From a virus, in IMG/VR virus record IMGVR_UViG_3300037502_000606, positions 1 to 61,862 of that record: a stretch of 61,862 nt of DNA, one strand, 5' to 3'. Position 1 is the first letter of the stretch. Each line of letters begins with the position of its first letter. The notes beneath the pieces are model-generated. The model searched no databases and was not told the DNA's origin. It saw only the letters and a program-made list of their open reading frames with translations. Of this stretch, positions 24,554 through 39,846 are shown piece by piece. Position numbers and translations under genes: made by a program.

Positions 24554-24817
24554 CTATTCTTTAACTGGTTGTCTCTCTGCCCACATATTTAAGCATGTCT
24601 GCTCCAGCTCAAGCGAGGGCGGGTTTGTCTTCATGGCATCTTTAAGCCCCATGTTGTACGCCTGGACGACATCTTTTGGCATAGTCAACTGGCTGGGGTC
24701 TGGTTGCTGCGTCAGGCGGTCAAAGATCAGGACTGCCAGGAGCATGGAGAACATGCCGAAGGTGAAGCCAGCCCAGTAGGTGCCGTTCTGTATGCGTTGA
24801 TCAAGTAGTGAGTTCAT
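24554..24817 (-). CDS. small single-pass membrane protein
   Basis: The 87-residue protein has one N-terminal membrane span (about 14-35, YWAGFTFGMFSMLLAVLIFD), then a soluble helical C-terminus. Its ATGA overlaps the upstream gene. It lies downstream of a 125-base gap before the DUF3310 gene. Function unknown; early phage membrane proteins may alter envelope processes or exclude other phages. Confidence 0.65.
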   Translation of the reverse strand: MNSLLDQRIQNGTYWAGFTFGMFSMLLAVLIFDRLTQQPDPSQLTMPKDVVQAYNMGLKDAMKTNPPSLELEQTCLNMWAERQPVKE

Positions 24818-24969
24818 CTCATCTCCCTTATCGCTATTAAAGCTCTTACATAGTCTTCTTTTGAAATGCCAAGACGTTCAGCGGACTGCAACTCTGCAAA
24901 CGTTACCGTGATGACGCGTGCTTTCATGGTCGGTCGCACGGTGAGCCTGACTTTTTTTCTTACTTTCAT
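24814..24969 (-). CDS. small basic protein, unknown
   Basis: The 51-residue frame starts MKVRKKVRLTVRPTMKARVI and contains the helical SAERLGISKEDYVRALIAIR. ATGA overlaps on both sides tie it into the operon. The beta-strand plus two-helix pattern could be a ribbon-helix-helix protein, but the evidence is thin. Confidence 0.6.
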   Translation of the reverse strand: MKVRKKVRLTVRPTMKARVITVTFAELQSAERLGISKEDYVRALIAIREMR

Positions 24970-25172
24970 GTATTTTTCTCCATCAGTCTTAATTCAATCT
25001 CCACGGCCAGGACTCGGGGGTCTTTGCCAAGTTCTTTGATTACCTCTTCAAACTCTTCATCGGTGAGGTGAACCCATTCACGCCTCTTTTCCATGGCTTG
25101 GCGTAACTCATTCCGCTGAGCCAGGATGCACTCTGGCCTATCGCAGTAGTAGCTGCATGTGTGTGTGCTCAT
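24966..25172 (-). CDS. tag-array protein 1 (WVHLTDEE / EKNT tail)
   Basis: The 68-residue protein has a cysteine-containing N-terminus (CSYYCDRPEC), then REWVHLTDEEFEEVIKELG and ends RLMEKNT. It is the last and most diverged member of a run of genes (24966-26687) sharing a W-V-x-L-T-D-E-E box and an EKN(T/S) tail. Its tail codons contain GGAGA, the ribosome site for the next gene. The N-terminal cysteines may bind zinc. No known function. Confidence 0.65.
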   Translation of the reverse strand: MSTHTCSYYCDRPECILAQRNELRQAMEKRREWVHLTDEEFEEVIKELGKDPRVLAVEIELRLMEKNT

Positions 25173-25327
25173 GTGTTCTTCTCCCTTGATACTTCTTCAG
25201 GTATTTTTTCTAATCGCACGTAGGTAACTGGCTCCCATTTGTCGCTTCCGTCTCGCAGGACTTGTATGTCCCACTGTAACTTCTTGGCCTCGTCTACCCA
25301 CTCAACTACACGTATGTCTTTAATCAT
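25169..25327 (-). CDS. tag-array protein 2 (EKNT tail)
   Basis: The 52-residue frame begins MIKDIRVVEWVDEAKKLQWD and ends EEVSREKNT. It lacks the WVGLTDEE box but has the same C-terminal EKNT whose codons (GGGAGAAGAACACATGA) supply the next ribosome site and ATGA junction. It is predicted to be a small beta-rich protein. It overlaps genes on both sides by four bases. Confidence 0.6.
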   Translation of the reverse strand: MIKDIRVVEWVDEAKKLQWDIQVLRDGSDKWEPVTYVRLEKIPEEVSREKNT

Positions 25328-25542
25328 GTGTTCTTCTCCTTTTCTGCGGCTTCGTAGCCCGCTTCAAACCCTTTATGCCATGCTTTCTCCCAACACTGAC
25401 ACCACATTTCGTAGTATCCCCGTTGTAGCGGAAATGAAAACTCTGGTTCTTTAAAATACTCCTTTACATCTTTGCGTTTGATGAACGCCGCCCATGCCTT
25501 GTCACGGTCTGAGTCGTTGACTGGTATGTTGTTTAGTTTCAT
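25324..25542 (-). CDS. tag-array protein 3 (EKNT tail)
   Basis: The 72-residue protein contains PLQRGYYEMWCQCWEKAWHK and GFEAGYEAAEKEKNT. The W-x(3)-W-x-x-GFEAGY pattern is common in small phage proteins of unknown function. Its tail codons end AAGGAGAAGAACACATGA, so the C-terminus doubles as the next gene's ribosome site. Confidence 0.65.
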   Translation of the reverse strand: MKLNNIPVNDSDRDKAWAAFIKRKDVKEYFKEPEFSFPLQRGYYEMWCQCWEKAWHKGFEAGYEAAEKEKNT

Positions 25543-25736
25543 GTATTCTTCTCCTTTAGTTTGGCTTCGATCTGGTCAAACAACTTGCGGGTATAGCCCT
25601 TTATCGGAGTGGGACCCCAGGGGCCGATGATTTCTTTGATCTCCTCGTCGGTCAGCCCAACCCATTGTTTGGCGTTCTCTCGTTCACACCCAGACCTCTT
25701 ACAAAGACCACCGCAAGACGGGCATTGTCTATCCAC
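25539..25736 (-). CDS. tag-array protein 4 (zinc knuckle, WVGLTDEE, EAKLKEKNT)
   Basis: The 65-residue protein starts at a GTG overlapping the previous gene by eight bases. Its N-terminus CPSCGGLCKRSGC (about 5-17) is a likely zinc knuckle. The conserved box QWVGLTDEEIKEIIG follows at about 24-38, and it ends QIEAKLKEKNT. It shows the modular plan of the array most clearly: variable head, fixed box, variable linker, fixed tail. Confidence 0.65.
   Translation of the reverse strand: MDRQCPSCGGLCKRSGCERENAKQWVGLTDEEIKEIIGPWGPTPIKGYTRKLFDQIEAKLKEKNT
25545..25571 (-). repeat. tag/SD repeat, copy A
   Basis: This 27-base unit encodes IEAKLKEKN and contains AAGGAG, the ribosome site of the next gene. 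It differs from the copies at 25738 and 26004 at only two positions. Confidence 0.75.
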
Positions 25737-26001
25737 CGTTCTTCTCCTTCAGTTTGGCTTCGATAGCAATATACAAATACAACATCATGGGCGCCCATAC
25801 TGGGCCAAGCTTTTCTTGAATCTCTTGCCATTCACGAATTCCATGCCGCTCCTCATCAGTCAGCCCAACCCATTCTTTTGATGGTGCGGGTGAATTAACC
25901 CTTGCAAACCTAACGCCAGCAAGAAAAGCAGCGTAGTTGTCGGACTGCTCCGCCGCAATTTCAACGTCACTTGATTCTGGCTCTCGCTTTATTTCTTTCA
26001 T
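25729..26001 (-). CDS. tag-array protein 5 (WVGLTDEE, EAKLKEKNGG)
   Basis: The 90-residue protein has a helical N-terminus (EIAAEQSDNYAAFLAGVRFA), the conserved KEWVGLTDEERHGIREWQ box (about 42-59) and ends AIEAKLKEKNGG. Its N-terminal half differs completely from its neighbours. The ATGA overlap with 25998 is kept. Confidence 0.65.
   Translation of the reverse strand: MKEIKREPESSDVEIAAEQSDNYAAFLAGVRFARVNSPAPSKEWVGLTDEERHGIREWQEIQEKLGPVWAPMMLYLYIAIEAKLKEKNGG
25738..25764 (-). repeat. tag/SD repeat, copy B
   Basis: This 27-base unit is identical to the copy at 26004-26030. It encodes the IEAKLKEKN tail of the 25729 protein and carries AAGGAG before the GTG start at 25736. Confidence 0.75.
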
Positions 26002-26687
26002 GAGTTCTTCTCCTTCAGTTTGGCTTCGATGGCTCGGGCAAACGATGTTGCAGGTCTTGATGTCGTTATAGGCAGCTCAGCCAATATTTCCTCGTCGGTC
26101 AGCCCAACCCATTCACGGGATGCGGCAACAATGGCGGCAAAGTTTTGAAGGTCCTCTACTTTGTTGATTCCGTACCCAGCACCGTTTAGTCCTTCTACCC
26201 AAGCAAGTCCTGCTTTTTTCGCCATGCGAATAAGTTCATTCTTTGTAAACACAGGCTCATGTCGATCTTTTGCCGTTTCATCGACACGTTCTTGCGATAT
26301 GTCGCTGGCGTGTACAGGTGCGGTTTTAGAACAAGCCCCAACGCATCCGTTTGTTGCTTGGCATTGTGGATATGTGCATTGAACCGCATGCACCACAGGT
26401 CTGGCGTGTACAGGTGCGGCATAAAAAGGTATTGCAGTTGATTTAAAGATTTCATTTGCTTCTTTGTGAACTTTAAATTGTCCCTTTTTGTTTGCCCACG
26501 CCACAGGTTGTGGTTCACGATGGCTTATTGGTTCGCCTTCTGAAAAGTAAACCTCACGCAATACCCACCCTTCTTGCTTCTCTGCCTGCTCTATGGCTTG
26601 GCGTAGGGCAACAGCAGCCCTCAATTGAATGCTTGGGTCATCGGAATCCAAAGCCTCCAATGCTTGCTTCATAGCCTCAATGCTCAT
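25998..26687 (-). CDS. tag-array protein 6 (WVGLTDEE, EAKLKEKNS)
   Basis: The 229-residue protein is the largest member of the array. The N-terminus MSIEAMKQALEALDSDDPSI is a common phage opening. The middle has a cysteine-rich segment CTYPQCQATNGCVGACS (about 103-119) and AKKAGLAWVEGLNGAGYGIN, a fragment shared with other phage proteins. It ends with REWVGLTDEEILAELPI and AIEAKLKEKNS. It looks like a mosaic of small modules assembled onto a fixed C-terminal pair. No enzyme motif. Confidence 0.7.
   Translation of the reverse strand: MSIEAMKQALEALDSDDPSIQLRAAVALRQAIEQAEKQEGWVLREVYFSEGEPISHREPQPVAWANKKGQFKVHKEANEIFKSTAIPFYAAPVHARPVVHAVQCTYPQCQATNGCVGACSKTAPVHASDISQERVDETAKDRHEPVFTKNELIRMAKKAGLAWVEGLNGAGYGINKVEDLQNFAAIVAASREWVGLTDEEILAELPITTSRPATSFARAIEAKLKEKNS
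26004..26030 (-). repeat. tag/SD repeat, copy C
   Basis: The third copy of the 27-base unit encodes IEAKLKEKN at the end of the 25998 protein and supplies AAGGAG for the 25729 gene across an ATGA junction. Confidence 0.75.
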
Positions 26688-26698
26688 CTCTCACCCCT

Positions 26699-26932
26699 TT
26701 AAGTTTCTAGTGCCTCGGTCTTAAGTTTGTAATCCTCGGCTTTGGGTTTACGGTTGATCAGATTAAAAGGGTCGTGCCACTTCATTTCCGGTGGTTTGTC
26801 AAAGTAGACGTACTTGTGGTCAGGCCCTCGCATACGCCGCATGTACCCGAGCTTGACCTTGCGCTCTAGCCTTTTCCGAGCACTGTTCTCCGATATCTTT
26901 TGTTTCTTAGCATACTGCGCCACGGTCATCAT
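26699..26932 (-). CDS. small HTH protein
   Basis: The 77-residue protein has an N-terminal helix-turn-helix, TVAQYAKKQKISENSARKRL (about 3-22), then a basic wing-like LGYMRRMRGPDHKYVYFD. It is probably a DNA-binding regulator. Its ATGA overlaps the Rap1a/Tai-like gene's stop. Confidence 0.65.
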   Translation of the reverse strand: MMTVAQYAKKQKISENSARKRLERKVKLGYMRRMRGPDHKYVYFDKPPEMKWHDPFNLINRKPKAEDYKLKTEALET

Positions 26933-27936: not shown

Positions 27937-28473
27937 TTATTTCTGTACAAACCAGGACTGAAACAAACTCGCCCAGTCTTCCCCTTTGTCACACTGAGTT
28001 ACATATAGTTCACGGTTTACGTTCTTCACAAACGTGTTGACCGCAGTGGTTGTCTCTGGCCATTGAACGTCGTAGTCATCCCCACCAAAGAGCCCGCCAG
28101 GCTTTACCTTCGGCCACCAGTCATAGAAGGTCTTGCCCCGCTCCTGACCGGTATGGGCGTAGCCATCGACGTAGATGAAATCAAAGTATTCATCCGGGAA
28201 TAACTTGACCGCCACGGAGAAGTCGCACCGCAGCAGGGTGAACCGATGCTTGAATCGCTCCAGTCTATTAAGAGCCTTCAGGTACTCATCATCCGTATGC
28301 CCGCGCTCCCCGGTGTAGCGATCCACCCCGTAGTGATAGGAGGCCCGCCCCTTAACGAGTATGGCTTCCGAAAACCCGCCTTCAGCTACGCCTAACTCAA
28401 TAGAAATGCCATGAAAAGGAATGAGATTAGGGAGGTCATACCGACTCTTGATTGCTGCAATTTTGTCTTTCAT
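27937..28473 (-). CDS. class I SAM-dependent methyltransferase
   Basis: The 178-residue protein has motif I-like ELGVAEGGFSEAIL (about 27-40), the SAM-binding acidic residue in YHYGVDRYTGE, and motifs in DFIYVDGYAHTG (about 97-108) and WWPKVKPGGLFGGDDY (about 118-133), as in the Methyltransf_24/TylF-like group. There is no DNA target-recognition domain, so a small molecule or sugar is likelier than DNA. Its role in infection is unknown. Confidence 0.75.
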   Translation of the reverse strand: MKDKIAAIKSRYDLPNLIPFHGISIELGVAEGGFSEAILVKGRASYHYGVDRYTGERGHTDDEYLKALNRLERFKHRFTLLRCDFSVAVKLFPDEYFDFIYVDGYAHTGQERGKTFYDWWPKVKPGGLFGGDDYDVQWPETTTAVNTFVKNVNRELYVTQCDKGEDWASLFQSWFVQK

Positions 28474-29157: not shown

Positions 29158-29460
29158 CTAGAAGGGAAAGTCATCTTCTACTGGTTCTTGTGGTTCCGGC
29201 TTTGGCTCAGGCTTAGGCTCGGGCTTTTCTTTGGCTGGCCTGGGGGCCTGGATTTTGAGACCAAGGTATTCTTTGCCGGTAGCACTAATGTTTTCCCACG
29301 CGGTTATTTCTACGACGACAAGCTCGTCTGTCTGTTCAAGCATCTTGGCAAGGAACTCACGATCCAGATAAAGACTTCCCTTCCTATCTGGGTGGCTGTC
29401 TTTCTCTTTGTATTCGTTGATAAACAGTTTGCCAGTATTGGGTTTGTTCTGATAAGTCAT
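29158..29460 (-). CDS. SSB-like protein with DDFPF tail
   Basis: The 100-residue protein has an OB-fold-like body (KGSLYLDREFLAKMLEQTDE, VVVEITAWENISATGKEYLG), a proline/lysine/glutamate linker and the acidic C-terminus VEDDFPF. Bacterial SSB proteins end in DDDIPF, the hook that recruits replication and repair proteins. It lies between the ERF gene and the 28739 gene, matching an annealing operon. The OB fold is inferred. Confidence 0.65.
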   Translation of the reverse strand: MTYQNKPNTGKLFINEYKEKDSHPDRKGSLYLDREFLAKMLEQTDELVVVEITAWENISATGKEYLGLKIQAPRPAKEKPEPKPEPKPEPQEPVEDDFPF

Positions 29461-30170
29461 GCTGCCTCCTGGAACTTGTTCTTAGCGTTGGTAAAGACTG
29501 CCATTAGATCTTTGTGGAACACCGCGTCAACGTTCTTCACAGCCTCAAAGAGCGTCTTGTTATTGCGGTAGATAGACATGACGTCGTCTTGCGAACCAGC
29601 CGCTTCTAAGGCGATATGAGAGGCTCTCTTAACCAACTCCAGCCACTCAGTAGGATCTCCCTCTGGCTCAGCCGGGGCAACGATCTGCCAGGCCCCTTCT
29701 CTGCCTACGATCTTCTTTGGCGCCTCTTTGACTTCTGCCTTTGGCTCGACCTTTGGTTCAGGCTTAGGCGTGGGCTTAGGAGTAGGTTTAACTTCCTCTC
29801 CCGTCGTGGCATCCAGGGCATCGTGCTCGACGATCTCAAAGGCGTTCGTCCACAGATACCGACGGAGATAAGTCTGTACGGCTCCAAGGTTCTGGACGGC
29901 ATGACAGCCCTTCAGTTCAGCCGATGACATGGGAGAACTAAAGACTATGCACTCGCTATTGGTCGTGTCATAGATGTTCAGGAAGGCGTTGTTCGCGGTG
30001 TAGGAGACAACCCCGCAGAGACCCACTTCGTTACAGATCTCTTGGATAGCTGGAAGGAAGTCTCCCAGTTCAAAGTATTCGTACCCTGCAAACTTGTTCT
30101 TCCCTGACTTGGTAAGTTTGCGACCCTGTAACTTGACTCGGGCTTGTTGTAGTTTTGCGTAGACAGTCAT
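29457..30170 (-). CDS. ERF-family single-strand annealing protein
   Basis: The 237-residue protein fits the ERF recombinase family: AKLQQARVKLQGRKLTKSGK and NKFAGYEYFELGDFLPAIQE near the N-terminus, and LGAVQTYLRRYLWTNAFEIV (about 93-112), the family's hallmark. A Pro/Lys/Glu-rich linker precedes a helical C-terminus. It anneals complementary single strands made by the RecB-like exonuclease, giving recombination-dependent replication. The ATG overlaps the previous stop codon. Confidence 0.85.
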   Translation of the reverse strand: MTVYAKLQQARVKLQGRKLTKSGKNKFAGYEYFELGDFLPAIQEICNEVGLCGVVSYTANNAFLNIYDTTNSECIVFSSPMSSAELKGCHAVQNLGAVQTYLRRYLWTNAFEIVEHDALDATTGEEVKPTPKPTPKPEPKVEPKAEVKEAPKKIVGREGAWQIVAPAEPEGDPTEWLELVKRASHIALEAAGSQDDVMSIYRNNKTLFEAVKNVDAVFHKDLMAVFTNAKNKFQEAA

Positions 30171-30322
30171 CAAGAAATCCTTTTGTAGTATTCATCAACC
30201 AACGCCGTAGCGCAGTTCGCTAGGTCTTTTGTGAACTCTGGATCGCCTAGCCAATCCATGACCTCCGCGTTAGACGCTAAGGCCAACATGAACTTAAGCA
30301 GCAGTTCCTGTCTTGTTTCCAT
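30170..30322 (-). CDS. small helical protein of the recombination operon
   Basis: The 50-residue protein starts at ATG 30322 after GGAGAG and ends in the overlap with the ERF gene. The sequence METRQELLLKFMLALASNAE is helical and acidic. It overlaps the RecB-like gene by 29 bases in another frame. Function unknown. Confidence 0.6.
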   Translation of the reverse strand: METRQELLLKFMLALASNAEVMDWLGDPEFTKDLANCATALVDEYYKRIS

Positions 30323-31193
30323 TGATACTCTCCTGATAGTCCCGCCATTGTTGGCAGTACATGTTGACTGGGCAGAATGATTCACAACGGGTCCGACTGC
30401 CCGGACGGACCTCCAACTCTTGCGTCTTGGGATCGAGCGCAGCCTCCGCTTCCTCCTTGACTTCATATACCTTGATAGCCCGGACGCCACCCTTCTTCTT
30501 GATAGCGTAGGTTGTAGGCCGCTCCCACATCTCATCAGGGGTGCATGGGGGTAGATCCTCATCTGTCTCCATGGCAAACTCACAGGCCGAGTGCAAGGCC
30601 AACCGCTTGGCTATGTACTCCTCTCGATCCTGATAGGGCCATAGCTTGATAGGGATCTCTTTGATGGGGGCTTGAGGATAGTCTGGGTTCTTTGCTGCCT
30701 CCCGCCGCGACCAGTCCCGGATGATGGCTACGATGCCCAGGTTACTCACATGATGGTCATGCTTAACCGTCTCAACCAGCCAGGCGTAGATGTTCAACTG
30801 GTTTTCCCAGTCTATCTTCTCGTTCATCACCGCCCATGCCGAAGTGGTCTTGTAGTCCCGTATGGCAATCCCACCCTGGTCATCCAGGATCTGTAGGTCT
30901 ACGGCACCAGAGATCCGCCAGCCCTCCAGGGTAGCGTGTAGCCGCTCCTCAACGATATGGTTGTCTGCCTTGCCATGCTCCAGTACGCCATGAACGGCTG
31001 TACCAAAGATACTCCATACCATGTCAGCTACGTCCTGTTCCAACTCGTCTTCAAATTTCTTGGTCAGAGCCACAATCTTCGGGCTGTTGAGTAGCTGCGT
31101 AGCCGAGAGGTGGGCCTTACCTTTTGAATAAGTCGGGCGCTTCAAGACATTGATGAACGTCTCTGGTATGTTGTGCTTGTTCGTTAGCTTCAT
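30294..31193 (-). CDS. RecB/Cas4-like PD-(D/E)XK exonuclease
   Basis: The start at MKLTNKHNIP follows CAGGAGAGCAC. The 299-residue protein has the RecB-family nuclease motifs: the early histidine in FGTAVHGVLEH, EGWRISGAVDLQIL (first acidic residue) and IRDYKTT (K of the PD-(D/E)XK core). A C-terminal cysteine cluster RTRCESFCPVNMYC may hold an iron-sulphur cluster as in Cas4. It probably resects DNA ends for the ERF annealing protein. It is the first gene of the early operon. Confidence 0.85.
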   Translation of the reverse strand: MKLTNKHNIPETFINVLKRPTYSKGKAHLSATQLLNSPKIVALTKKFEDELEQDVADMVWSIFGTAVHGVLEHGKADNHIVEERLHATLEGWRISGAVDLQILDDQGGIAIRDYKTTSAWAVMNEKIDWENQLNIYAWLVETVKHDHHVSNLGIVAIIRDWSRREAAKNPDYPQAPIKEIPIKLWPYQDREEYIAKRLALHSACEFAMETDEDLPPCTPDEMWERPTTYAIKKKGGVRAIKVYEVKEEAEAALDPKTQELEVRPGSRTRCESFCPVNMYCQQWRDYQESINGNKTGTAA

Positions 31194-31224
31194 GTGCTCT
31201 CCTGTTATATCGTTCCTATGCAAT

Positions 31225-31253
31225 ATACTAGCTTCTGATCGTGCATATAGCAA
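31225..31253 (-). promoter_or_regulatory. candidate early leftward promoter
   Basis: On the minus strand TTGCTA (31253-31248) and TAGTAT (31230-31225) are spaced by 17 bases, 32 bases upstream of the RecB-like start. This fits a sigma-70 promoter for the early operon. A perfect operator lies 30 bases upstream (31283-31307). Confidence 0.6.
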
Positions 31254-31333: not shown

Positions 31334-31783
31334 ATGCTCTACCTTGGAATTGACCCTGGATTCACCGGTGCATGGGGCCTTGTAAATCATCGAGGAGACT
31401 TCGTTGCCTGCGGGGATATGAAGCATAACGACCGCTGGATAGACACCAATCAAGTGTCCCGAGACATCATGCAGGCCAGGCAATTAGACGATGTGATGGT
31501 GGTGGTGGAGGCCGTACACGCTATGCCCAAGCAGGGCGTATCAAGCTCCTTCAAGTTTGGGATGGCCTATGGCGCTGCCATTGCAATCGCAACGCGGTTC
31601 TCTCAGTTTGAACTTGTTCCGCCCAGGGTCTGGAAGAAGGATATGGGACTGACGGCAGACAAGAAGGACAGCCTGGTCATGGCCCGAGAGCTATGGCCAG
31701 ACTCCCCTCTTGAAAGAGTGAAGGATAACGGCAGGGCAGAAGCCCTTCTCCTAGCTGAGTGGCTACGGAGAGCTTATCTCTGA
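31334..31783 (+). CDS. RuvC-like Holliday junction resolvase
   Basis: The 149-residue protein has the RuvC/RNase H-like pattern: GIDPGF with D7, VVVEAVHAM with E59, and DNGRAEALLLAEW (about 131-143) with the last acidic residues. It resolves junctions in the concatemer before packaging and so partners TerL. It is encoded alone on the plus strand, overlapping the giant gene's end by ten bases. Other RNase H-like enzymes are possible but RuvC is favoured. Confidence 0.85.
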   Translation: MLYLGIDPGFTGAWGLVNHRGDFVACGDMKHNDRWIDTNQVSRDIMQARQLDDVMVVVEAVHAMPKQGVSSSFKFGMAYGAAIAIATRFSQFELVPPRVWKKDMGLTADKKDSLVMARELWPDSPLERVKDNGRAEALLLAEWLRRAYL

Positions 31784-34700
31784 GCTGCCGCTACCCTGTC
31801 GTTGAACCGCTTCATCTGGACAGCGATCTGATTCTCTACCGCCTTGACCTGCTCCTTCGGGGCATCCTTCTCTAACAGAGCATCCCGGCGCTTACGGAGG
31901 GCCTGGAGGTTACGCTCGACCTGATTGGCGTAAGAGAAGAGCCTGGCGTCTGGATTGTCCATCAGGTACTCCTGGACGTTCTCCCGGTTCTCGCGTCTAC
32001 CTTTGATCTCCCGCTCATGTTTATTGAGCTGCATGATGTTGTTGTAGAAGCGGTTACGCTCGGCAGCAAGACCCTGGGTGTCGCCAACAAAGCGTCCAAT
32101 CAGGGGCACCTTATAGATCGGCAGATCTTCGCCTGTAACTTGGCTACGAAGAGTCTGTTCAACCTTCATAACCTCACGGCCAACACCACCAGTAAACTGA
32201 CCTATCAGGTAGTCAATCTGATCTGGGGTGGGACTCACTACTCCAGGGGTGTACTTTGTTCCACCAGAGGCATAGTTCAGGAACTCAGACAGGCCCTTGC
32301 CAACAATGCTGGCCGTCTCTCTAGCCCGTGTATACCCAGGGGTAGGATCAAGCCCAGAGATGTCTTCCTTGGCAATCGGCTTACCAGTCCAATCTACGTT
32401 CTCCGTAAGAGCAATAACAGGATCTAGGGCGGTAGGGGTTATCGTTTGAGCCGACCACCCGGCATTGCCAAGCGGGTTGAACATATCCAACGTTGCCGAG
32501 AGGATGCTGCTAATCCGCTTGGGCGTATCTTTGAACCCAGAAATCGCCCACTCTGTAGCAATTCGGCTTGTGTTAGGGATAACGTTGTATCCCAAAGGCA
32601 TTGGAATGGTAATGTACTTTGATCCGCCAATCGGCAGAACAATGTTCCGCTCTTTCACAAACTCCGGTGGCTCATCTTCATCAAAACCTGCCGCTGCAAG
32701 CGCCATGGCTTGAAGTATTCCAAGGATAATACCGCCCCCAATAATTTTTATTCCAGCCGGGCCTTTGAGCGTGTCATACATCCTGACTGTACCCTGGACG
32801 GAGGCATTGAAGAACGCATACAGAGCACCCATCTGCCGGCCAATCTGTCCCTTGCGGTTAAAGTTCACCGTAAGGTTCTTGGCCACTGACGCTGCCTGCT
32901 GCTTGGTCATGCCTTGGTCGAGCGCTACCTTATACGCAGAGAGACGAACCGCGTTCTCCATCGTCTGGTTATAGTCAGACAACCAGTCAAAGAGTGGGGT
33001 GGCTGCTTTACGAGCTATCTCTGCGGGAACTTTGAGTGTTCCGCCAGCCGTAAAGATTTTCCCAAGTTTGCTTTTCGTCCAAGATGATGGGTCGAGGATG
33101 CGTTGCAATGCCTCTGCCCGCTCTTGACTACGGCTAAACATATCTCTAAAGCCGGTCTGCGCCCCTTCTTTCTGGAACTCTTCCCAGAGCTGCGCCCAGG
33201 GACGATTCGTAGAAGGCTGACCCTTACGCTTAGCTCTTTCTTCTCCGTAGATTCCGCGAAGAGCGGGCATAACACCAGCAAGAACTTGCTTTTGCTTCCC
33301 GGCAATTGGCGTAGTGCTGAGCTGTAGCATTGCACCTTGAACGTCGCGCAAGAAGTTGATGCCGCCGAAAATTGGGTTGTACTGCGTGTTGATCTTGGCG
33401 AAATATTGAGTAAACGCCTGAGAAATACTCAGAGCTTTACTGAGCTGATCAACGTCCAGATTCTTCAACGACTCCACCATCCTCACTGCCCGAGGATCTT
33501 TGGAGTTAAAAATTAGAAACTTCTCTTCTCCGTTGATGCGGATAGGCAAAGACAGTGCGCTTGTGATCAACCGCTCGTTTGGAACCTCTTTGACTGTATT
33601 TGTTGCCGGATCAACATCCCTGCGGGTCGGCGTGTTGGCAATGTTTTGCGCGTCAGACGGGTTGATCCCCATCGAGATAAGATCATTGATTAGCTGCTGC
33701 GGATCTTTCTTGATGTAAGGATCGTATGGCAACCAGAACCCAGGATTGGGATTAGTCACCGCCAGAGCATAGACAGCCTTGGCCACACGGAGCTTCTCTG
33801 CCCGGATGATGGCCCGCTCCCGCTGCATAGCAACGTTAGCCAAGATGTCTACAACCTTACGTCCAGATCCTACAGATGCCCTGCTGAACGGTCCTTTGAT
33901 AGCAAAACCAGACCCAACGCCGACACCAACGTTCTTGACATCGTAGTCAGCTTCTTCCCGGTTTAGCGGAACATAGTGCTTGTAAGCCTTGTTCCAATTG
34001 TCAATTACCTCTTGCTTCTCTTGGCCGCTGGAGACAATAAGATCTTGCGTCCCCTTGACGATGTCATCAACCATCTTGGCAACGTCATCAAAGGCTTTCT
34101 TCTGCTGCGGGGTAAGAGCTGCTAGATACTTCTTAGCGTCTGCCGTGAGGATTCCTGATCCCCCGTCAGGCATGGTCGGATCACGTTTAGCGTTTTGGAT
34201 ATTGCGCTCTTCAGCATGGCGATTCTGTAGGTACTCTTCTACCTGATCCATGGTTAGCTTGCGATCACGCAGCGCCTTCATCAATGGCTCAAGCTCATCC
34301 TTCAAGAAGTCTTCTGTCTGTTTGGCCGTCCTGCCGTGATACAACTCCTCTTGGAGATACGGGTTCCAGGAATCAATCAGGCTCTTACGTTGCGCCGTAA
34401 TCTTTTGAACAACCCGCTTTGTATCAATGTTCTTGTCTTGGAGAACGTAGAGAATGTCATCGATCTTCGACTCATCAGGAGATCCCCAGGTCGCCTTGGG
34501 CATGGGCTGGCCAAAGATATTCTTGCTGACATTTTGGGGAACCATCGCCCGAACACCCGTCTCTGTAACAAAGTCTACGAGAGACTTGTTATCCATGCGC
34601 TCTGGCTGATCTTTCATCAGGCGATCAAAGACTTTGTGTACGCCAAGACGATTGTCGAATCCAAAGACCTTCTTCATGGACTCTATGAGCTTACGCACCG

Positions 34701-37700
34701 CAGACTTAAACCGCTCCCACTGAGTACCTAGCTTGGCAGCAAAGAGCTTCTCAGCATTGATCGCCCAATATTCTGATGGACTGAGGTACTGATAGAAGTC
34801 ATAAGACGGCATGGATTGGACAGCCGCAGCAAAGGACGCATCACTAGGAGTATCTAAGAACTCGATGACATTCTTAAAAAACGCCTGTGACTGAGCATCT
34901 TTGTTCTTTTTGACCGCCGCATCAAAGGCGCTTCTCCAGGAATCCAAGACAACCTTCTTCTGTTCAGCGGTCATCATCTGCTCAAGCGAGTGCATGATTT
35001 CGTGACGGACAGTAGAAGGATCTTCAATCCCCGACGTTCCATTCCATAGAGTCACCACCCTAGCAAACGGCTGGAAGTTTCCTGAAGACTTGTCTTCCTT
35101 TGGTTTCCTGACAGACAGACGCAGACCGTTGAGAACCCACGGCGTCTTAACATACGCATCACGGATAGTCGCTAACACCTCTGGGCTGAGATCACCCTTC
35201 TCATAGGCATCAAGAGCACGACGCAGGAAGTTCTCAGGACTACGGGAAGGTTCAGCGGTGGCATCAATGTCTTCTTTGAGCTGCTTGGCAAGCTCATCTG
35301 TAAGAGCAATGTTGCGCTGCAATTCAATGCTTGGACCCTGGGCTACGTATTCTTTGACTAGCTGGCTGCGCTTAGCACGGAGACGGGTGTACTCAACAAT
35401 CTGCTCGTCCCTTGATGCAATACGTCCAGCATCAACTTCAACCTCTGTTACAGGAGTCGTAGCATCAATGTTGTAGAGGAAGTTCTGCTTGGAACCATAC
35501 TCAACACCACGGGCCAAGATCATGTTACCGATCTGGAGAACTGCATCAGCCTTGACCACTGGAAGAGTAGTGGCCCTATCAAAGAAGTAGGCATGTCTTG
35601 TCGGATCAAAACCTAACTGGACATACCGTGGATCTTTAATAGCCTGCTGCGCCATTTGATAGGCTTCGGCTGGAGATACGTTGACGTACTCCCCTTCCAT
35701 GGTCTGAAGGGCATCTTTGGCCTGGCCAGCGGCAATCTCTAGGGCTTTGGCCTGATTGCTCAGAGCAAACGTAACATTCTTTACCATCGCTACGCTGCGG
35801 TATCCAATGGCTAAACCAGGCTTTGCCGACGTTGATTTAGGCCGGCCCTCATGTATGGATACAACGAACGTCTTGTGATTGTTCCAGGCTGGTATGTCTA
35901 AGCGCAGACCAACCTTGGTTCCATCGGGGATAGATACGTTCGCCTTGGGCTTCTTGTCTGAGGACAGGGCATTGACTACCTGCTCATCGGTCGCAGGGAC
36001 AAGCGGCTCTGTATAGACGGGGATAGGACGATACTTGTTGACCGCTGCGTCGTATTCCTCTTTGGTAAGCAGGCCAGCCTGGAGCTGTTCAGCCATAGCA
36101 GCAAGCTCAGGTGAACGCCCAGGAGGTAGCTTCTTCTTAGCCTTGGGGAGTTCTTCGTTTATCTGGTTAAGAGTCTTGGCGTCATCACCAAAGAGATCTG
36201 TCTGGGGGCTGGCTACGTCTATGGTAATAGTTTCTTTAGCCTCCACAGATCTTGGGCTTACCTTGGTTCTTCCAAGCTCTCTCAAATCTTTATCTAGCTC
36301 GACCAACGGACTAGAAAGCAACTTATCTGAGGTGCTAACAAGAGCTTCAAGCGCAGATAAAGTGTTTGTCGGAAGACCAAGTATGCGACGAGCAATATCT
36401 ACCAGCTTGCCAAAAGCTGTAAATTGTTTACTTACTTGGATGTCTTTTAAGTAATTTTGAACATCACCCTCAGACATCCCCATTGCCATCAATTCATCTA
36501 TGTTTGATAGCGTGTACGTAACTTTAAAAATGAATTTTTCATCTTTAACCGGATCGTACTTGTTTGCTTTTAATTCTTCTCTAAACTTGGTTCTCAGTTC
36601 TTGACGAAGACTTTCAAGTTCTTTTATTCGTGGATCTGATTTTTTTAGCCCCGCTGTCTGGATAACTGTTGCCGCATGAATCAGCTCATGCAAAATAGTT
36701 TGATACTCCAGCCCATTGCCGCGAGGCGCCTTTTTTCCTTGCACCAAACCATTCAGGCGATAGTCAAACTTGAATCCATCTATGTTCAGTCTGTAAGTTA
36801 CCTTGCCCTTATATCCTTGGACACGACGGCTGTCGTTAAGGATGATTGGGCCATTCATCTCTATACCGCGAGAAGAAAAATCCTTGATTCTGTTTTTAAT
36901 CTTGGATGCTATTTCTTTCGCTAGTTCGTTTGGCGCGTTATCAACTGCCCACTTAGCCAACCCAGGTACATCTAGTTTTTTTATCTCGTCATAAATCTGT
37001 TCCGCAGATTTTTCTATCTCCGCTTTAAATTCTTTTGGAGCTGGTGGCTCGGGTGGCTTGACCTCTGTAGGTTCACCAAATAAATCTGGCTCTTGTTCTA
37101 TTTCTTTGAGAGACTCAAATACCTGATCTAGCGTAGGCCGAGGAGGAACCTGCCCAAACATATCTGGCTCTTGCGATACCTGGCTTGCATCCATGGCCGC
37201 ATCGGCAAGACGAGATAGTCCTTCAGCAATGCGCTTGGTAGAACGCCCACTGTCAGCAATGAACTCCATGATCTTCTGGGCATATGGGTCTAATCCAATA
37301 GCGCCCTGCTTCACAAAGGTGGGCATTTCCTTGATAGGAACGCCCTGGCGTACAGCAGATACAAGGTTCTCAATACCCTCTACAACCTTGGAGCGAATGT
37401 CGTAATCGCCCGCCCCTGATAGTTTGACCATCTTTGGAGCAACCTTAGCCAGACTGTTGAGATACATCTTTGCGTCTGGGTTTGTGGTTGCTGCGTACAG
37501 ATCTATAAGCGCATCATTCTCATAGGCGCCGTAGAAGATGGCGTTTAACAGTCGAGCACTAGCCTCCGGGGTTGGAAGCCCGGTGGACTTGTTAATTAAC
37601 TCTGACTGCTCACTCTCCGGCATGGCCTGGATGAACTGTCTCAGAGTAGAGAGCTGCGGGACTCCCTCTTCGGTGAATTGCAAACCAGTAAGGTCGAACT

Positions 37701-39846
37701 TACCAGCAAGCCTATTGAGGTCGTTCTTCGCCCTGTCTACAGGTTCAAGTCCAGCGATACCAGATACGTTTGATAAGTCGCCAATGTTTTCCGGTACCAG
37801 CCCTTTCGGCATGATCCGAACGAGGACTGGGTTTGGTATGGCAGCGATGACCTCTTGACTGACACCATGAGAAGGATCGTTGATTAGTTCATTACGATAC
37901 TTATCTGTCGTCTTGCGGTTGTATGCCTCTTGTATTCCAGCGATACGACCATTGCCAGCGACGGCCCTGATACCAGGGACACTTAAGTCTCCGTAAAATG
38001 GATTGACTGTTCCATCTGCAAGGTTAGACGTAAACACTTCTGTTGCCGGTACGACTGCATAGCGAACTGGGAATCTCTGCCCATTAGACGCCGTGGCCAT
38101 ATCAGTACGTCCAAGAAACTCACTTGGGATGTTTATGTCACTGATGATTACAGGAGCACCTTCAGCCAAAACCTTGGACGGGCCAACGAGTGAGTAGTCT
38201 GGTGCTGATGCAATCTTCTGCATCTGAGCAACCGACCCTTTCCCAGACCTATCGCGGTTCTGGAATATCGTCTGAGCATTTGGTACCTGCCCCTGAAAAT
38301 AGTTATCCAGAGCTTGCTGTTCTTCCGGCGTGAACTCCGTCGGCTTTATCGTAGGTGGAACACCAGGCGTCGTGCCTGTTGGGATGGATGGAGGAGTCAA
38401 TCCAGAAGTAGGAGGAACACCGGTCGGTGGTGTCGGCGTAGTACCAACAGGAACCATGGGCGGCGTAGGCGTCGTTGAAACCGGCGTTGTTGGTGGAGTG
38501 GGAGTTGCAGGAGGAGTGGGCGCCGTTGGCGGAGCAAAGGTGGCTGGATTTACACCAACGAGCATTGCCGCCGTTGAATTGGCGCCATCAAAGTCATCGA
38601 ATATACCGGCATCAGAAGACTGCCCAGAGTTCCCATCTACGTATATGACCTGGAACCTCCCATCTGGTGTTGGAGTTATCCTCACCTCGACGTTGTTTCC
38701 AGCGTCTGCATATCCACCAAGAAGGTCTGGCCCTGGAGAAAGAGGTACGACTGGAGCGGCCCCAGGAGCAGCGCCCGTGGGAGTTACAGGAGTAACTGCG
38801 GCTGGTGGTGCAGCAGGCGTCGGTGCAGCGGCAGCTGGCGGAGTTGCGGTAGGAGGGATAGGAGGAGCGGCAGGACCAGCTTCACCAGCAGCTCCAATAC
38901 CAGCACCCAGAGCACCACCTGCAATAGCCTCTAATGCAGCCTGACCAGCTACGCCTCGAAATGTCGGTACATCAAGCCCTTCTCTTTGAGCAGCAATGTT
39001 AGCCGCCAATTGTTCCTGTCCAGCCTGAATAGCCTCTGGAACAGCCTCTGTCACGCCGGTTTCTACCGCCTGACGAACAGCGCCCTTTTGAGCAGCCTGT
39101 TGAGCCGCTTGCTTTGCCGCGATCTTTCCAAGAATGTATTTCTCAACACCAGTCCTACCAGCAACAGCACCAAGAGCCGTGCCGGCAAGAATCATGTCAA
39201 GGTTTTCACCGCCGTACTCTTGAGCAGCTATAGCCCGCTCTTCAGCTTCCTTCTCTGATGCGCCGGCCTTCTTAAGTTCTTCTTTGACGGTGTCATATAT
39301 CGTGCCTTTGACTACGCCAGCGCCCGTCAATCCAGCGGTGGTAACTAAGCCTGGCAAACCAGCAACGGCGCCCAACAGAATAGGAACGGACGATCCAGCA
39401 GCTTGAGCAAGGAAGTCAACCGGAGCCGTGGCAAATGCAGATAGCGCGGCTTTAAGTTGTTCACCAAGTCCCTTGTCTTCCGCATCCTTCATGATGGCGG
39501 CAATCGCCTGAGAGTCCTGTTTGGACTGTGCAGACGCTAGTTCAGCAAGGTACTTCTCTACGCCACGAATGTTTTGAGCAGCAGCATTGTTGGCACCAAA
39601 TGCTTCCGTAATAGCGCGGGTCGTTGATACAGTCCCTTCAGCAATTTTAAGAGGAACGTCAAGAACTTCCCTGGTAAAAGACTCTGGCTTGGCCGCTTCA
39701 GCAAACTGTTTCGGCGTTACTCCAAAGACGGACTCAAGGAATCCTTTTTCTTCTGGCGGCTTAATCCCAATGCCAGTTAGATACTTGTCTGGATCAAATT
39801 CTGTCGAACTAATCCCCCGCAGGTATGCGTCTGGATCGAAAGCCAT
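31774..39846 (-). CDS. giant polyvalent ejected protein
   Basis: This 2690-residue protein is the last gene of the ejection module. Seen in order: FDPDAYLRGI-type repeats at the start; an Ala/Gly-rich helical region to about 330 with membrane-like segments; a long Pro/Thr/Ala linker (about 330-510); a DdrB/ParB-like domain (about 515-790) with GNGRIAGI; a metallopeptidase-type HELIH near 1054; another HEIMH near 1616; a helical region; an LPD38-type domain near 2180-2370 (FNRKGQIGRQMGALYAFFNA); and a coiled-coil end. Such polyvalent proteins are delivered with DNA to counter host defences. Enzymatic activity is not shown. Confidence 0.8.
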   Translation of the reverse strand: MAFDPDAYLRGISSTEFDPDKYLTGIGIKPPEEKGFLESVFGVTPKQFAEAAKPESFTREVLDVPLKIAEGTVSTTRAITEAFGANNAAAQNIRGVEKYLAELASAQSKQDSQAIAAIMKDAEDKGLGEQLKAALSAFATAPVDFLAQAAGSSVPILLGAVAGLPGLVTTAGLTGAGVVKGTIYDTVKEELKKAGASEKEAEERAIAAQEYGGENLDMILAGTALGAVAGRTGVEKYILGKIAAKQAAQQAAQKGAVRQAVETGVTEAVPEAIQAGQEQLAANIAAQREGLDVPTFRGVAGQAALEAIAGGALGAGIGAAGEAGPAAPPIPPTATPPAAAAPTPAAPPAAVTPVTPTGAAPGAAPVVPLSPGPDLLGGYADAGNNVEVRITPTPDGRFQVIYVDGNSGQSSDAGIFDDFDGANSTAAMLVGVNPATFAPPTAPTPPATPTPPTTPVSTTPTPPMVPVGTTPTPPTGVPPTSGLTPPSIPTGTTPGVPPTIKPTEFTPEEQQALDNYFQGQVPNAQTIFQNRDRSGKGSVAQMQKIASAPDYSLVGPSKVLAEGAPVIISDINIPSEFLGRTDMATASNGQRFPVRYAVVPATEVFTSNLADGTVNPFYGDLSVPGIRAVAGNGRIAGIQEAYNRKTTDKYRNELINDPSHGVSQEVIAAIPNPVLVRIMPKGLVPENIGDLSNVSGIAGLEPVDRAKNDLNRLAGKFDLTGLQFTEEGVPQLSTLRQFIQAMPESEQSELINKSTGLPTPEASARLLNAIFYGAYENDALIDLYAATTNPDAKMYLNSLAKVAPKMVKLSGAGDYDIRSKVVEGIENLVSAVRQGVPIKEMPTFVKQGAIGLDPYAQKIMEFIADSGRSTKRIAEGLSRLADAAMDASQVSQEPDMFGQVPPRPTLDQVFESLKEIEQEPDLFGEPTEVKPPEPPAPKEFKAEIEKSAEQIYDEIKKLDVPGLAKWAVDNAPNELAKEIASKIKNRIKDFSSRGIEMNGPIILNDSRRVQGYKGKVTYRLNIDGFKFDYRLNGLVQGKKAPRGNGLEYQTILHELIHAATVIQTAGLKKSDPRIKELESLRQELRTKFREELKANKYDPVKDEKFIFKVTYTLSNIDELMAMGMSEGDVQNYLKDIQVSKQFTAFGKLVDIARRILGLPTNTLSALEALVSTSDKLLSSPLVELDKDLRELGRTKVSPRSVEAKETITIDVASPQTDLFGDDAKTLNQINEELPKAKKKLPPGRSPELAAMAEQLQAGLLTKEEYDAAVNKYRPIPVYTEPLVPATDEQVVNALSSDKKPKANVSIPDGTKVGLRLDIPAWNNHKTFVVSIHEGRPKSTSAKPGLAIGYRSVAMVKNVTFALSNQAKALEIAAGQAKDALQTMEGEYVNVSPAEAYQMAQQAIKDPRYVQLGFDPTRHAYFFDRATTLPVVKADAVLQIGNMILARGVEYGSKQNFLYNIDATTPVTEVEVDAGRIASRDEQIVEYTRLRAKRSQLVKEYVAQGPSIELQRNIALTDELAKQLKEDIDATAEPSRSPENFLRRALDAYEKGDLSPEVLATIRDAYVKTPWVLNGLRLSVRKPKEDKSSGNFQPFARVVTLWNGTSGIEDPSTVRHEIMHSLEQMMTAEQKKVVLDSWRSAFDAAVKKNKDAQSQAFFKNVIEFLDTPSDASFAAAVQSMPSYDFYQYLSPSEYWAINAEKLFAAKLGTQWERFKSAVRKLIESMKKVFGFDNRLGVHKVFDRLMKDQPERMDNKSLVDFVTETGVRAMVPQNVSKNIFGQPMPKATWGSPDESKIDDILYVLQDKNIDTKRVVQKITAQRKSLIDSWNPYLQEELYHGRTAKQTEDFLKDELEPLMKALRDRKLTMDQVEEYLQNRHAEERNIQNAKRDPTMPDGGSGILTADAKKYLAALTPQQKKAFDDVAKMVDDIVKGTQDLIVSSGQEKQEVIDNWNKAYKHYVPLNREEADYDVKNVGVGVGSGFAIKGPFSRASVGSGRKVVDILANVAMQRERAIIRAEKLRVAKAVYALAVTNPNPGFWLPYDPYIKKDPQQLINDLISMGINPSDAQNIANTPTRRDVDPATNTVKEVPNERLITSALSLPIRINGEEKFLIFNSKDPRAVRMVESLKNLDVDQLSKALSISQAFTQYFAKINTQYNPIFGGINFLRDVQGAMLQLSTTPIAGKQKQVLAGVMPALRGIYGEERAKRKGQPSTNRPWAQLWEEFQKEGAQTGFRDMFSRSQERAEALQRILDPSSWTKSKLGKIFTAGGTLKVPAEIARKAATPLFDWLSDYNQTMENAVRLSAYKVALDQGMTKQQAASVAKNLTVNFNRKGQIGRQMGALYAFFNASVQGTVRMYDTLKGPAGIKIIGGGIILGILQAMALAAAGFDEDEPPEFVKERNIVLPIGGSKYITIPMPLGYNVIPNTSRIATEWAISGFKDTPKRISSILSATLDMFNPLGNAGWSAQTITPTALDPVIALTENVDWTGKPIAKEDISGLDPTPGYTRARETASIVGKGLSEFLNYASGGTKYTPGVVSPTPDQIDYLIGQFTGGVGREVMKVEQTLRSQVTGEDLPIYKVPLIGRFVGDTQGLAAERNRFYNNIMQLNKHEREIKGRRENRENVQEYLMDNPDARLFSYANQVERNLQALRKRRDALLEKDAPKEQVKAVENQIAVQMKRFNDRVAAAQR

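What the first reader, a model, noticed from the sequence alone, without database searches (positions are those of the whole stretch)
24966..26687. Gene cassettes whose C-terminal tag is also the next gene's ribosome site
Six overlapping small genes end in (IEAKL)KEKN(T/S). The codons for this tail, ATCGAAGCCAAACTGAAGG then AGAAGAAC, contain the Shine-Dalgarno AAGGAG and lead straight into an ATGA junction. Three copies are nearly identical over 27 bases while the N-terminal parts are unrelated. Each cassette thus brings its own coupling signal to the next, so cassettes could be added, lost or shuffled without breaking the operon.
Basis: partly seen in the sequence, partly recalled or inferred. 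Interest (0 to 1): 0.72.

Follow-up and report, generated by a model that had tools for sequence, protein, structure and literature searches.

The report
Swappable phage genes with built-in joints
Lake-water viruses of bacteria carry a row of small genes built from interchangeable pieces, and the DNA stretch that ends one gene's protein is also the ribosome landing site for the next gene, so pieces can be swapped without breaking the row.

Summary
The finding is real and larger than reported. Six '-' strand genes (24966-26687) end in EKN(T/S/G), encoded by GGAGAARAAY that leads into the next start. AAGGAGAAGAACACATGA (up to 3 mismatches) occurs 5 times in the window, all at these ends, with 0.05 expected. 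It has no match in Pfam, PHROGs, NCBIfam or the PDB, but is common in IMG/VR contigs (505 non-identical genes collected). Relatives show exchange: near-identical N-parts on unrelated C-modules and the reverse, whole-gene presence/absence precisely at the tail repeat (g4 missing in L087/L088), and a crossover inside the tail (L083). Breakpoints concentrate at the WVGLTDEE codons and at the tail/start. In those two tracts some silent codon positions are conserved far above background. The tail also occurs on unrelated neighbouring proteins and, rarely, as an untranslated leader, so the ribosome site appears primary. Best explanation: a cassette array exchanged by homologous or annealing recombination at two short coding joints, one doubling as ribosome site. 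Exchange is well supported by sequence. Translational coupling and the recombinase are inferred. Protein function is unknown.

The parts
25998..26687 (-). g1 (229 aa): N-part MSIEAMKQALEALD..ALRQAIEQAEKQE, middle part with APVHA / DISQERVDETAKDRHEP, C-module WVGLTDEEI..IEAKLKEKNS
   Evidence: its N-part recurs with different C-modules in other contigs
25729..26001 (-). g2 (90 aa): N-part ..VEIAAEQSDNYAAFLAGVRFARVNSPAPSKE, C-module WVGLTDEER..IEAKLKEKNGG
   Evidence: in L084, L086 and L087 its N-part lies inside one gene together with g1's DETAKDRHEP segment
25539..25736 (-). g3 (65 aa, GTG start): MDRQCPSCGGLCKRSGCERENAKQ + C-module WVGLTDEEIKEIIGPWGPTPIKGYTRKLFDQIEAKLKEKNT
   Evidence: near-identical C-module on many other N-parts
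25324..25542 (-). g4 (72 aa): no WVxLTDEE module, tail only (EKEKNT); absent in L087/L088 exactly between the junction repeats
25169..25327 (-). g5 (52 aa): no WVxLTDEE module, tail only (SREKNT); follows g3 directly in L087
24966..25172 (-). g6 (68 aa): N-part MSTHTCSYYCDRPECI.., C-module WVHLTDEEF..VEIELRLMEKNT; in L083 a close copy of this C-module has another N-part (MTDRELLHW..)
26088..26111 (-). joint 1 (WVGLTDEE codons) in g1
   Evidence: repeat D2; breakpoint peak; crossover gradient
25849..25872 (-). joint 1 (WVGLTDEE codons) in g2
25641..25664 (-). joint 1 (WVGLTDEE codons) in g3
25053..25076 (-). joint 1 (WVHLTDEE codons) in g6
   Evidence: L083 shares g6 sequence from about here on (window 25079, 88% over 115 nt) but not upstream
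26004..26030 (-). joint 2: IEAKLKEKN codons with embedded SD AAGGAG, g1 to g2
25738..25764 (-). joint 2: IEAKLKEKN codons with embedded SD, g2 to g3 (GTG start 8 nt before the end of g2)
25545..25571 (-). joint 2: IEAKLKEKN codons with embedded SD, g3 to g4
25330..25341 (-). joint 2, tail only (AAGGAGAAGAAC), g4 to g5
25175..25186 (-). joint 2, tail only (AGGGAGAAGAAC), g5 to g6
24972..24983 (-). joint 2, diverged (ATGGAGAAAAAT), g6 to the next gene (24814-24969)
26699..26932 (-). upstream flanking gene (77 aa), kept in L087/L088 (94.5% DNA identity) and L083
24554..24817 (-). downstream flanking gene (MNSLLDQRIQNGTYWAGF.., 87 aa), kept in relatives
29457..30173 (-). ERF-family single-strand annealing protein (candidate recombinase for the exchanges)
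   Evidence: PF04404 E=1.2e-12; phrog_155 E=4.2e-24
30294..31253 (-). PD-(D/E)XK exonuclease, likely partner of the annealing protein
   Evidence: PF12705 E=1.8e-9; phrog_2139 E=1.6e-51

Best explanation
This is an early-region cassette array of a phage found in the IMG/VR collection, most of whose relatives come from environmental metagenomes and whose likely hosts include Comamonadaceae. Each gene is built from exchangeable pieces: one or more variable N-parts, often followed by a C-terminal module. The module is bounded by two short coding tracts: joint 1 (codons for WVGLTDEE, 24 nt) and joint 2 (codons for IEAKLKEKN, 27 nt). Joint 2 contains AAGGAG at a fixed 7-8 nt before the start codon of the next gene, usually in an ATGA overlap. 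Homologous or single-strand-annealing recombination between co-infecting phages, or between copies in one array, crosses over within these tracts. That swaps N-parts, C-modules or whole genes while keeping the reading frame and supplying a ribosome site to whatever follows. Shown by sequence: the modules, the exchanges, the breakpoint positions, the silent-site conservation of the two tracts and the SD/start geometry. Inferred: that the overlap gives real translational coupling, that the phage ERF/exonuclease pair or an equivalent carries out the exchange, and that the proteins serve accessory or host-interaction functions, with the predicted two-helix module as a shared docking or stability part.
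For: Module and array: 505 non-identical module genes in 298 loci, almost always C-terminal; 1-7 per long contig, mostly clustered within one stretch of a few kb. Coupling signal: ATGA at the stop in 66% of module genes vs 29% of controls; start codon 7-8 nt after the GAG codon in 306 of 339 coupled copies, whether the overlap is 4 or 8 nt; AAGGAG in 74% vs 11% of ATGA junctions. Tail is a portable ribosome site: it occurs on unrelated genes next to module genes (24/293 vs 18/1731 elsewhere, p=9e-11); of 405 motif-plus-start instances 379 are coding tails and 26 lie in leaders or truncated remnants; a different C-module type (..LTDEEI..FARAIEAAHGI) also often carries an SD-like stretch in its tail. 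Exchange: in a set not selected by g3, 16 of 22 locus pairs with N-parts at least 85% identical have C-modules under 60%, and 32 of 38 pairs with C-modules at least 85% identical have N-parts under 50%. Cassette loss/gain at the tail and a crossover inside the tail. Homology ends per covering alignment 0.60 just before W and 1.09 at the stop, against about 0.15-0.2 elsewhere. Silent sites: Gly GGG 0.83 vs 0.17 background, Leu CTG 0.80 vs 0.24, Ala GCC 0.75 vs 0.25, Lys AAG 0.95 vs 0.60, with linker codons near background. Crossover gradient inside joint 1: the Val wobble matches in 0.32 of random pairs but 0.70 of same-N/different-C and 0.73 of same-C/different-N pairs; by W+7 same-N pairs are at random level, while same-C pairs are at 0.93 by W+9. 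ERF and exonuclease 3-5 kb upstream on the same strand. No integrase or resolvase found in the window.
Against: ERF was detected in only 14 of 48 long module-bearing contigs and RecT above cut-off in none, so the recombinase is not shown to be general; some contigs are fragments and other annealing families were not tested. Coupled and uncoupled copies do not differ significantly in AAGGAG use. The tracts (24-27 nt) are near or below the roughly 30 bp minimum quoted for Redbeta (PMC3945230). Part of the DNA conservation could be shared ancestry plus protein constraint. The same-N/different-C sample is small (23 pairs), and pairs are not phylogenetically independent.
Confidence: 0.72

Rival explanations
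1. The shared C-terminus is simply a conserved protein domain (a two-helix interaction module) spread by duplication and ordinary phage mosaicism. Exchanges happen anywhere and only in-frame products with a working domain survive; the SD is an ordinary consequence of ATGA overlaps.
For: Amino acids W, V, G, L, T and the tail are strongly conserved and AlphaFold2 gives a two-helix model (mean pLDDT 81.6, pTM 0.54). Overlapping ATGA genes are common in these phages (29% of controls).
Against: Silent sites in the two tracts are conserved far above codon usage while some neighbouring conserved residues (E at W+7, I at K-7) use free codons. Crossover markers decay through joint 1. The tail is found on proteins without the domain and in untranslated or truncated contexts.
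Confidence: 0.35
2. The repeats are a start-associated regulatory element (like SAS in Cluster K mycobacteriophages) or a target of a phage translational regulator; the peptide tail is a by-product and shuffling is incidental.
For: The element sits at a fixed distance before starts, occurs on unrelated genes and in non-coding leaders, and contains AGGAG as SAS does (PMC3203893).
Against: Does not explain joint 1, the N/C swaps or the breakpoint peak at WVGLTDEE. Conservation of GAAGCC in the tail lies outside SD pairing but within the homology tract.
Confidence: 0.15
3. A dedicated site-specific recombination system moves the cassettes (integron-like or invertase-like).
For: Precise gain or loss of a whole gene between short repeats (g4).
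Against: No tyrosine integrase or serine resolvase was found in the window; no inverted-repeat recombination sites are evident at the junctions; crossovers are spread within joint 1 rather than at one position.
Confidence: 0.04

Closest known systems
Mosaic boundary sequences of lambdoid and other phages (recombination at short conserved boundaries)
   Same: Short conserved sequences between exchangeable pieces, crossover in or at them.
   Different: Here the boundaries are coding, repeated several times per genome, shared by many different contigs, lie inside genes as well as between them, and one carries the ribosome site of the next gene. [quoted passage not shown]
Start-Associated Sequences (SAS/ESAS) of Cluster K mycobacteriophages (PMC3203893)
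   Same: A repeated short element with an embedded AGGAG, a few nucleotides before starts of unrelated small non-structural genes, sometimes overlapping the upstream stop.
   Different: Different sequence (GGGATAGGAGCCC, not enriched in this window). SAS is not described as encoding a shared C-terminal protein module, and no cassette swapping at SAS was described in the passages read.
Phage protein domain mosaicism (Smug et al. 2023, PMC10684548)
   Same: Otherwise unrelated phage proteins share near-identical fragments, showing ongoing shuffling.
   Different: [quoted passage not shown] A joint that is also a ribosome site was not found in the passages read.
Relaxed homologous recombination by Rad52-like phage recombinases incl. 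Erf of D3 (PMC3945230)
   Same: Mechanism able to recombine short, diverged tracts; an ERF and an exonuclease are present in this window.
   Different: Not shown for these tracts; ERF was not detected in most of the long contigs with the module.

Membership tests
Overlapping, translationally coupled gene pairs | Stop and start overlap (ATGA or similar) with SD inside the upstream coding sequence | tested here: met
Overlapping, translationally coupled gene pairs | Downstream expression depends on translation of the upstream gene | not testable with these tools
   needs reporter constructs
Boundary-sequence phage mosaicism | Exchanged segments bounded by short shared sequences | tested here: met
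Boundary-sequence phage mosaicism | Crossovers lie within the shared sequence | tested here: met
   gradient at joint 1; L083 g4 tail; small sample for same-N pairs
SAS/ESAS of Cluster K mycobacteriophages | 13-bp consensus GGGATAGGAGCCC before starts | tested here: not met
   2 matches with 2 mismatches, 1.5 expected by chance
Integron gene cassettes | Tyrosine integrase (IntI) in the element | tested here: not met
   no PF00589 match in the window
Integron gene cassettes | attC sites (imperfect inverted repeats) after each gene | tested here: inconclusive
   no long inverted repeats at the junctions; no attC model run
Known protein domain family for the C-module | Significant match to a Pfam, PHROGs, NCBIfam or PDB profile or sequence | tested here: not met
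ERF-mediated recombination system | ERF annealing protein with exonuclease in the same phage | tested here: met
   for this window; ERF in only 14/48 long contigs

The most novel reading that the evidence does not exclude
The two tracts are kept at the DNA level because they serve recombination: phages that keep the canonical joint sequence go on exchanging cassettes with a shared gene pool, so a standard connector (joint 1, and joint 2 with its ribosome site) is maintained across many phages as a common assembly format for small early genes.
Probability: 0.3. Interest if true: 0.85.

Novelty: new variant of a known kind. Interest (0 to 1): 0.68.

Why it matters
How phages build mosaic genes without destroying reading frames and operons is an old question, and boundary sequences are usually not visible. 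Here many natural recombinants share two visible coding joints, one of which doubles as the next gene's ribosome site, so the boundary hypothesis can be tested statistically and at the bench. The joints also offer a way to find and annotate a large, so far unnamed pool of small early phage proteins by their common C-terminal module.

Tried and rejected
Named families for the module: no significant Pfam, PHROG or NCBIfam hit; profile search of PDB sequences gave only weak, helix-like matches (calmodulin EF-hand and the like, best E 0.068), judged chance. Annotated phage records: one Dishui Lake phage (DSL-LC04) with a single clear copy and weak matches in Manatee Spring records; the Vibrio matches are weak and hit an NAD-metabolism gene, judged chance. 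Bacterial genomes: 6 loci in the GTDB scan, all in MAGs, and no match in 250 other genomes drawn from the family of the Comamonadaceae MAG, so not a common prophage. Codon difference between coupled and uncoupled copies: not significant. RecT as the general recombinase: not supported. Site-specific recombinase: none found. A literature search for earlier description of phage cassettes joined through overlapping tails found none; many subscription papers are not in that library. Structural search of the two-helix model was not run because short hairpins match too many folds to be informative.

Full report
What is there. The window is an IMG/VR virus record of 61,862 bp. Its genes in this region run on the minus strand. 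Six overlapping genes, g1 to g6, lie at 24966-26687. All end in EKN plus T, S or GG. The junction AAGGAGAAGAACACATGA with up to three mismatches occurs five times in the whole window, all at these gene ends, against 0.05 expected from shuffles. The 27-nt tail is identical in g1 and g2 and differs by two bases in g3. One junction (g2/g3) is an 8-nt overlap with a GTG start instead of ATGA.

g1, g2, g3 and g6 share more than a tail. They share a C-terminal module of about 36-50 residues: [KR]xWVxLTDEE, a linker of variable length and sequence, then IEAKLKEKN or a close variant. g4 and g5 share only the last residues. The module has no significant match in Pfam, PHROGs, NCBIfam or the PDB. AlphaFold2 models it as two helices (mean pLDDT 81.6, pTM 0.54).

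How widespread it is. From 351 sequences a profile found 505 non-identical module genes in 298 loci, nearly always at the C-terminus. Long contigs carry one to seven copies, mostly clustered in one stretch of a few kilobases. In cellular genomes only six loci were found, all in metagenome-assembled genomes, including Comamonadaceae and other beta-proteobacteria; 250 other genomes drawn from the family of the Comamonadaceae MAG had none. Among annotated phage records only DSL-LC04 from Dishui Lake carries a clear copy, with weaker matches in Manatee Spring records.

The ribosome-site claim. Module genes end in ATGA in 328 of 499 cases, controls in 1080 of 3769. In coupled copies the start codon is 7 or 8 nt after the GAG codon in 306 of 339, whichever overlap class is used, so the start stays at a fixed distance from the SD while the stop position shifts. 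AAGGAG is present in 74% of module ATGA junctions and 11% of control ATGA junctions. Within IEAKLKEKN the first Glu is GAA 217:15 but the second is GAG 205:27, and the SD Lys is AAG 226:6. Copies without a close downstream gene keep AAGGAG almost as often (35/48 vs 275/339, not significant). This fits a signal that moves with the module, but it means the comparison does not prove coupling. The tail also sits on unrelated proteins without the module, preferentially next to module genes (24/293 vs 18/1731). Of 405 instances of the motif before an ORF, 379 are coding tails and 26 lie in non-coding leaders or truncated remnants. A second type of C-module (..LTDEEI..FARAIEAAHGI) has other tails, several of which also carry SD-like stretches; L204 shows two such bodies with the KEKN tail.

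The exchange claim. In the near relatives L083-L088 the array is bracketed by similar flanking genes but differs in content and order. L087 and L088 join g3 directly to g5 at AAAGGAGAAGAACACATGA, where the window has g4 in between. In L083 the g4 gene has the tail EAKLKEKN in place of EAAEKEKN and is followed by a different gene, so a crossover inside the tail is the simplest reading. A close copy of g6's C-module in L083 carries a different N-part. The segments that end g1's DETAKDRHEP and begin g2's ESSDVEIAAEQ lie in one gene in L086 and L087 but are split between two genes in the window. In the set of loci not chosen by g3, 22 pairs of genes from different loci have N-parts at least 85% identical; 16 of them have C-modules below 60%. 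38 pairs have C-modules at least 85% identical; 32 of them have N-parts below 50%. Homology breakpoints per covering alignment reach 0.60 just before W and 1.09 at the stop, against about 0.15-0.2 elsewhere (that set includes loci chosen for C-module similarity, which inflates coverage of the module but not the position of its ends).

Where the crossovers fall. Silent positions are informative. In random pairs the third base of the Val codon matches in 0.32; in pairs with the same N-part and different C-part it matches in 0.70, and in pairs with the same C-part and different N-part in 0.73. Moving through the tract, same-N pairs fall to the random level by W+7 (0.39 vs 0.37), while same-C pairs rise to 0.93 by W+9. 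This is what crossovers spread within the 24-nt tract predict. In addition some codons in the two tracts are conserved far beyond usage (Gly GGG 0.83 vs 0.17; Leu CTG 0.80 vs 0.24; Ala GCC 0.75 vs 0.25; Lys AAG 0.95 vs 0.60), while some neighbouring conserved residues (Glu at W+7, Ile at K-7) and the linker use near-background codons. The SD explains AAG GAG; it does not explain GGG CTG ACG GAT or GAA GCC. Homology use by recombination is the best single account, but shared ancestry and an unknown DNA or RNA signal are not excluded.

Mechanism. The window carries an ERF annealing protein (29457-30173) and a PD-(D/E)XK exonuclease (30294-31253) on the same strand a few kilobases upstream. Phage Rad52-like recombinases including Erf of phage D3 recombine short and diverged sequences (PMC3945230). 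ERF was found in 14 of 48 long array contigs and RecT above cut-off in none, so other recombinases or host functions must serve in many of these phages. No integrase or resolvase was found in the window.

Comparison with known systems. It works like boundary-sequence mosaicism, with the boundary inside coding sequence and doubling as ribosome site. It resembles the Start-Associated Sequences of Cluster K mycobacteriophages (PMC3203893) in being a repeated SD-bearing element before unrelated small genes, but the SAS consensus is not enriched here, and a shared protein module or cassette swapping was not described there in the passages read. Domain mosaicism of phage proteins is known in general (PMC10684548). 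I therefore rate it a new variant of a known kind. I found no earlier description in the library searched.

What is not known. The function of the proteins, whether the module binds a common partner, whether coupling is real in vivo, and which recombinase acts. The location near recombination genes and the extreme variability suggest accessory or host-interaction roles; this is inference only.

Noticed in passing
window 26305-26323 and 26401-26419 (- strand), inside g1: An exact 19-nt repeat (CCGCACCTGTACACGCCAG on the coding strand, codons for APVHA) occurs twice 96 nt apart inside g1; the phrase APVHASDISQERVDETA recurs in relatives and may be a further internal joint.
   Followed up: partly
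WVGLTDE codons of the module, e.g. window 26088-26111: Codons GGG CTG ACG GAT GAG are strongly preferred across 349 non-redundant modules while the Glu codon after them is free; the reason is not explained by any SD.
   Followed up: partly
L204, L378, L402, L424 and others: A second C-module type (..LTDEEI..FARAIEAAHGI + tail) pairs with the same N-parts; several of its tails also carry SD-like stretches before ATGA, and two L204 genes are hybrids ending AHGIKEKN.
   Followed up: partly
window 31774-39846 (-): A 2690-aa protein with PHROG matches to DarB-like antirestriction and virion RNA polymerase families in different regions; a very large, probably virion-associated protein.
   Followed up: no
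NZ_MG869617.1 and NZ_MG869615.1 (Polaromonas plasmids): Weak matches (E 0.1-0.5) to the C-module in two Polaromonas plasmids, in stretches without a listed gene; possible phage-plasmids or remnants.
   Followed up: no
window 27937-28473 (-): Small methyltransferase-like gene (phrog_2675, E=5.9e-10) between the recombination genes and the array.
   Followed up: no
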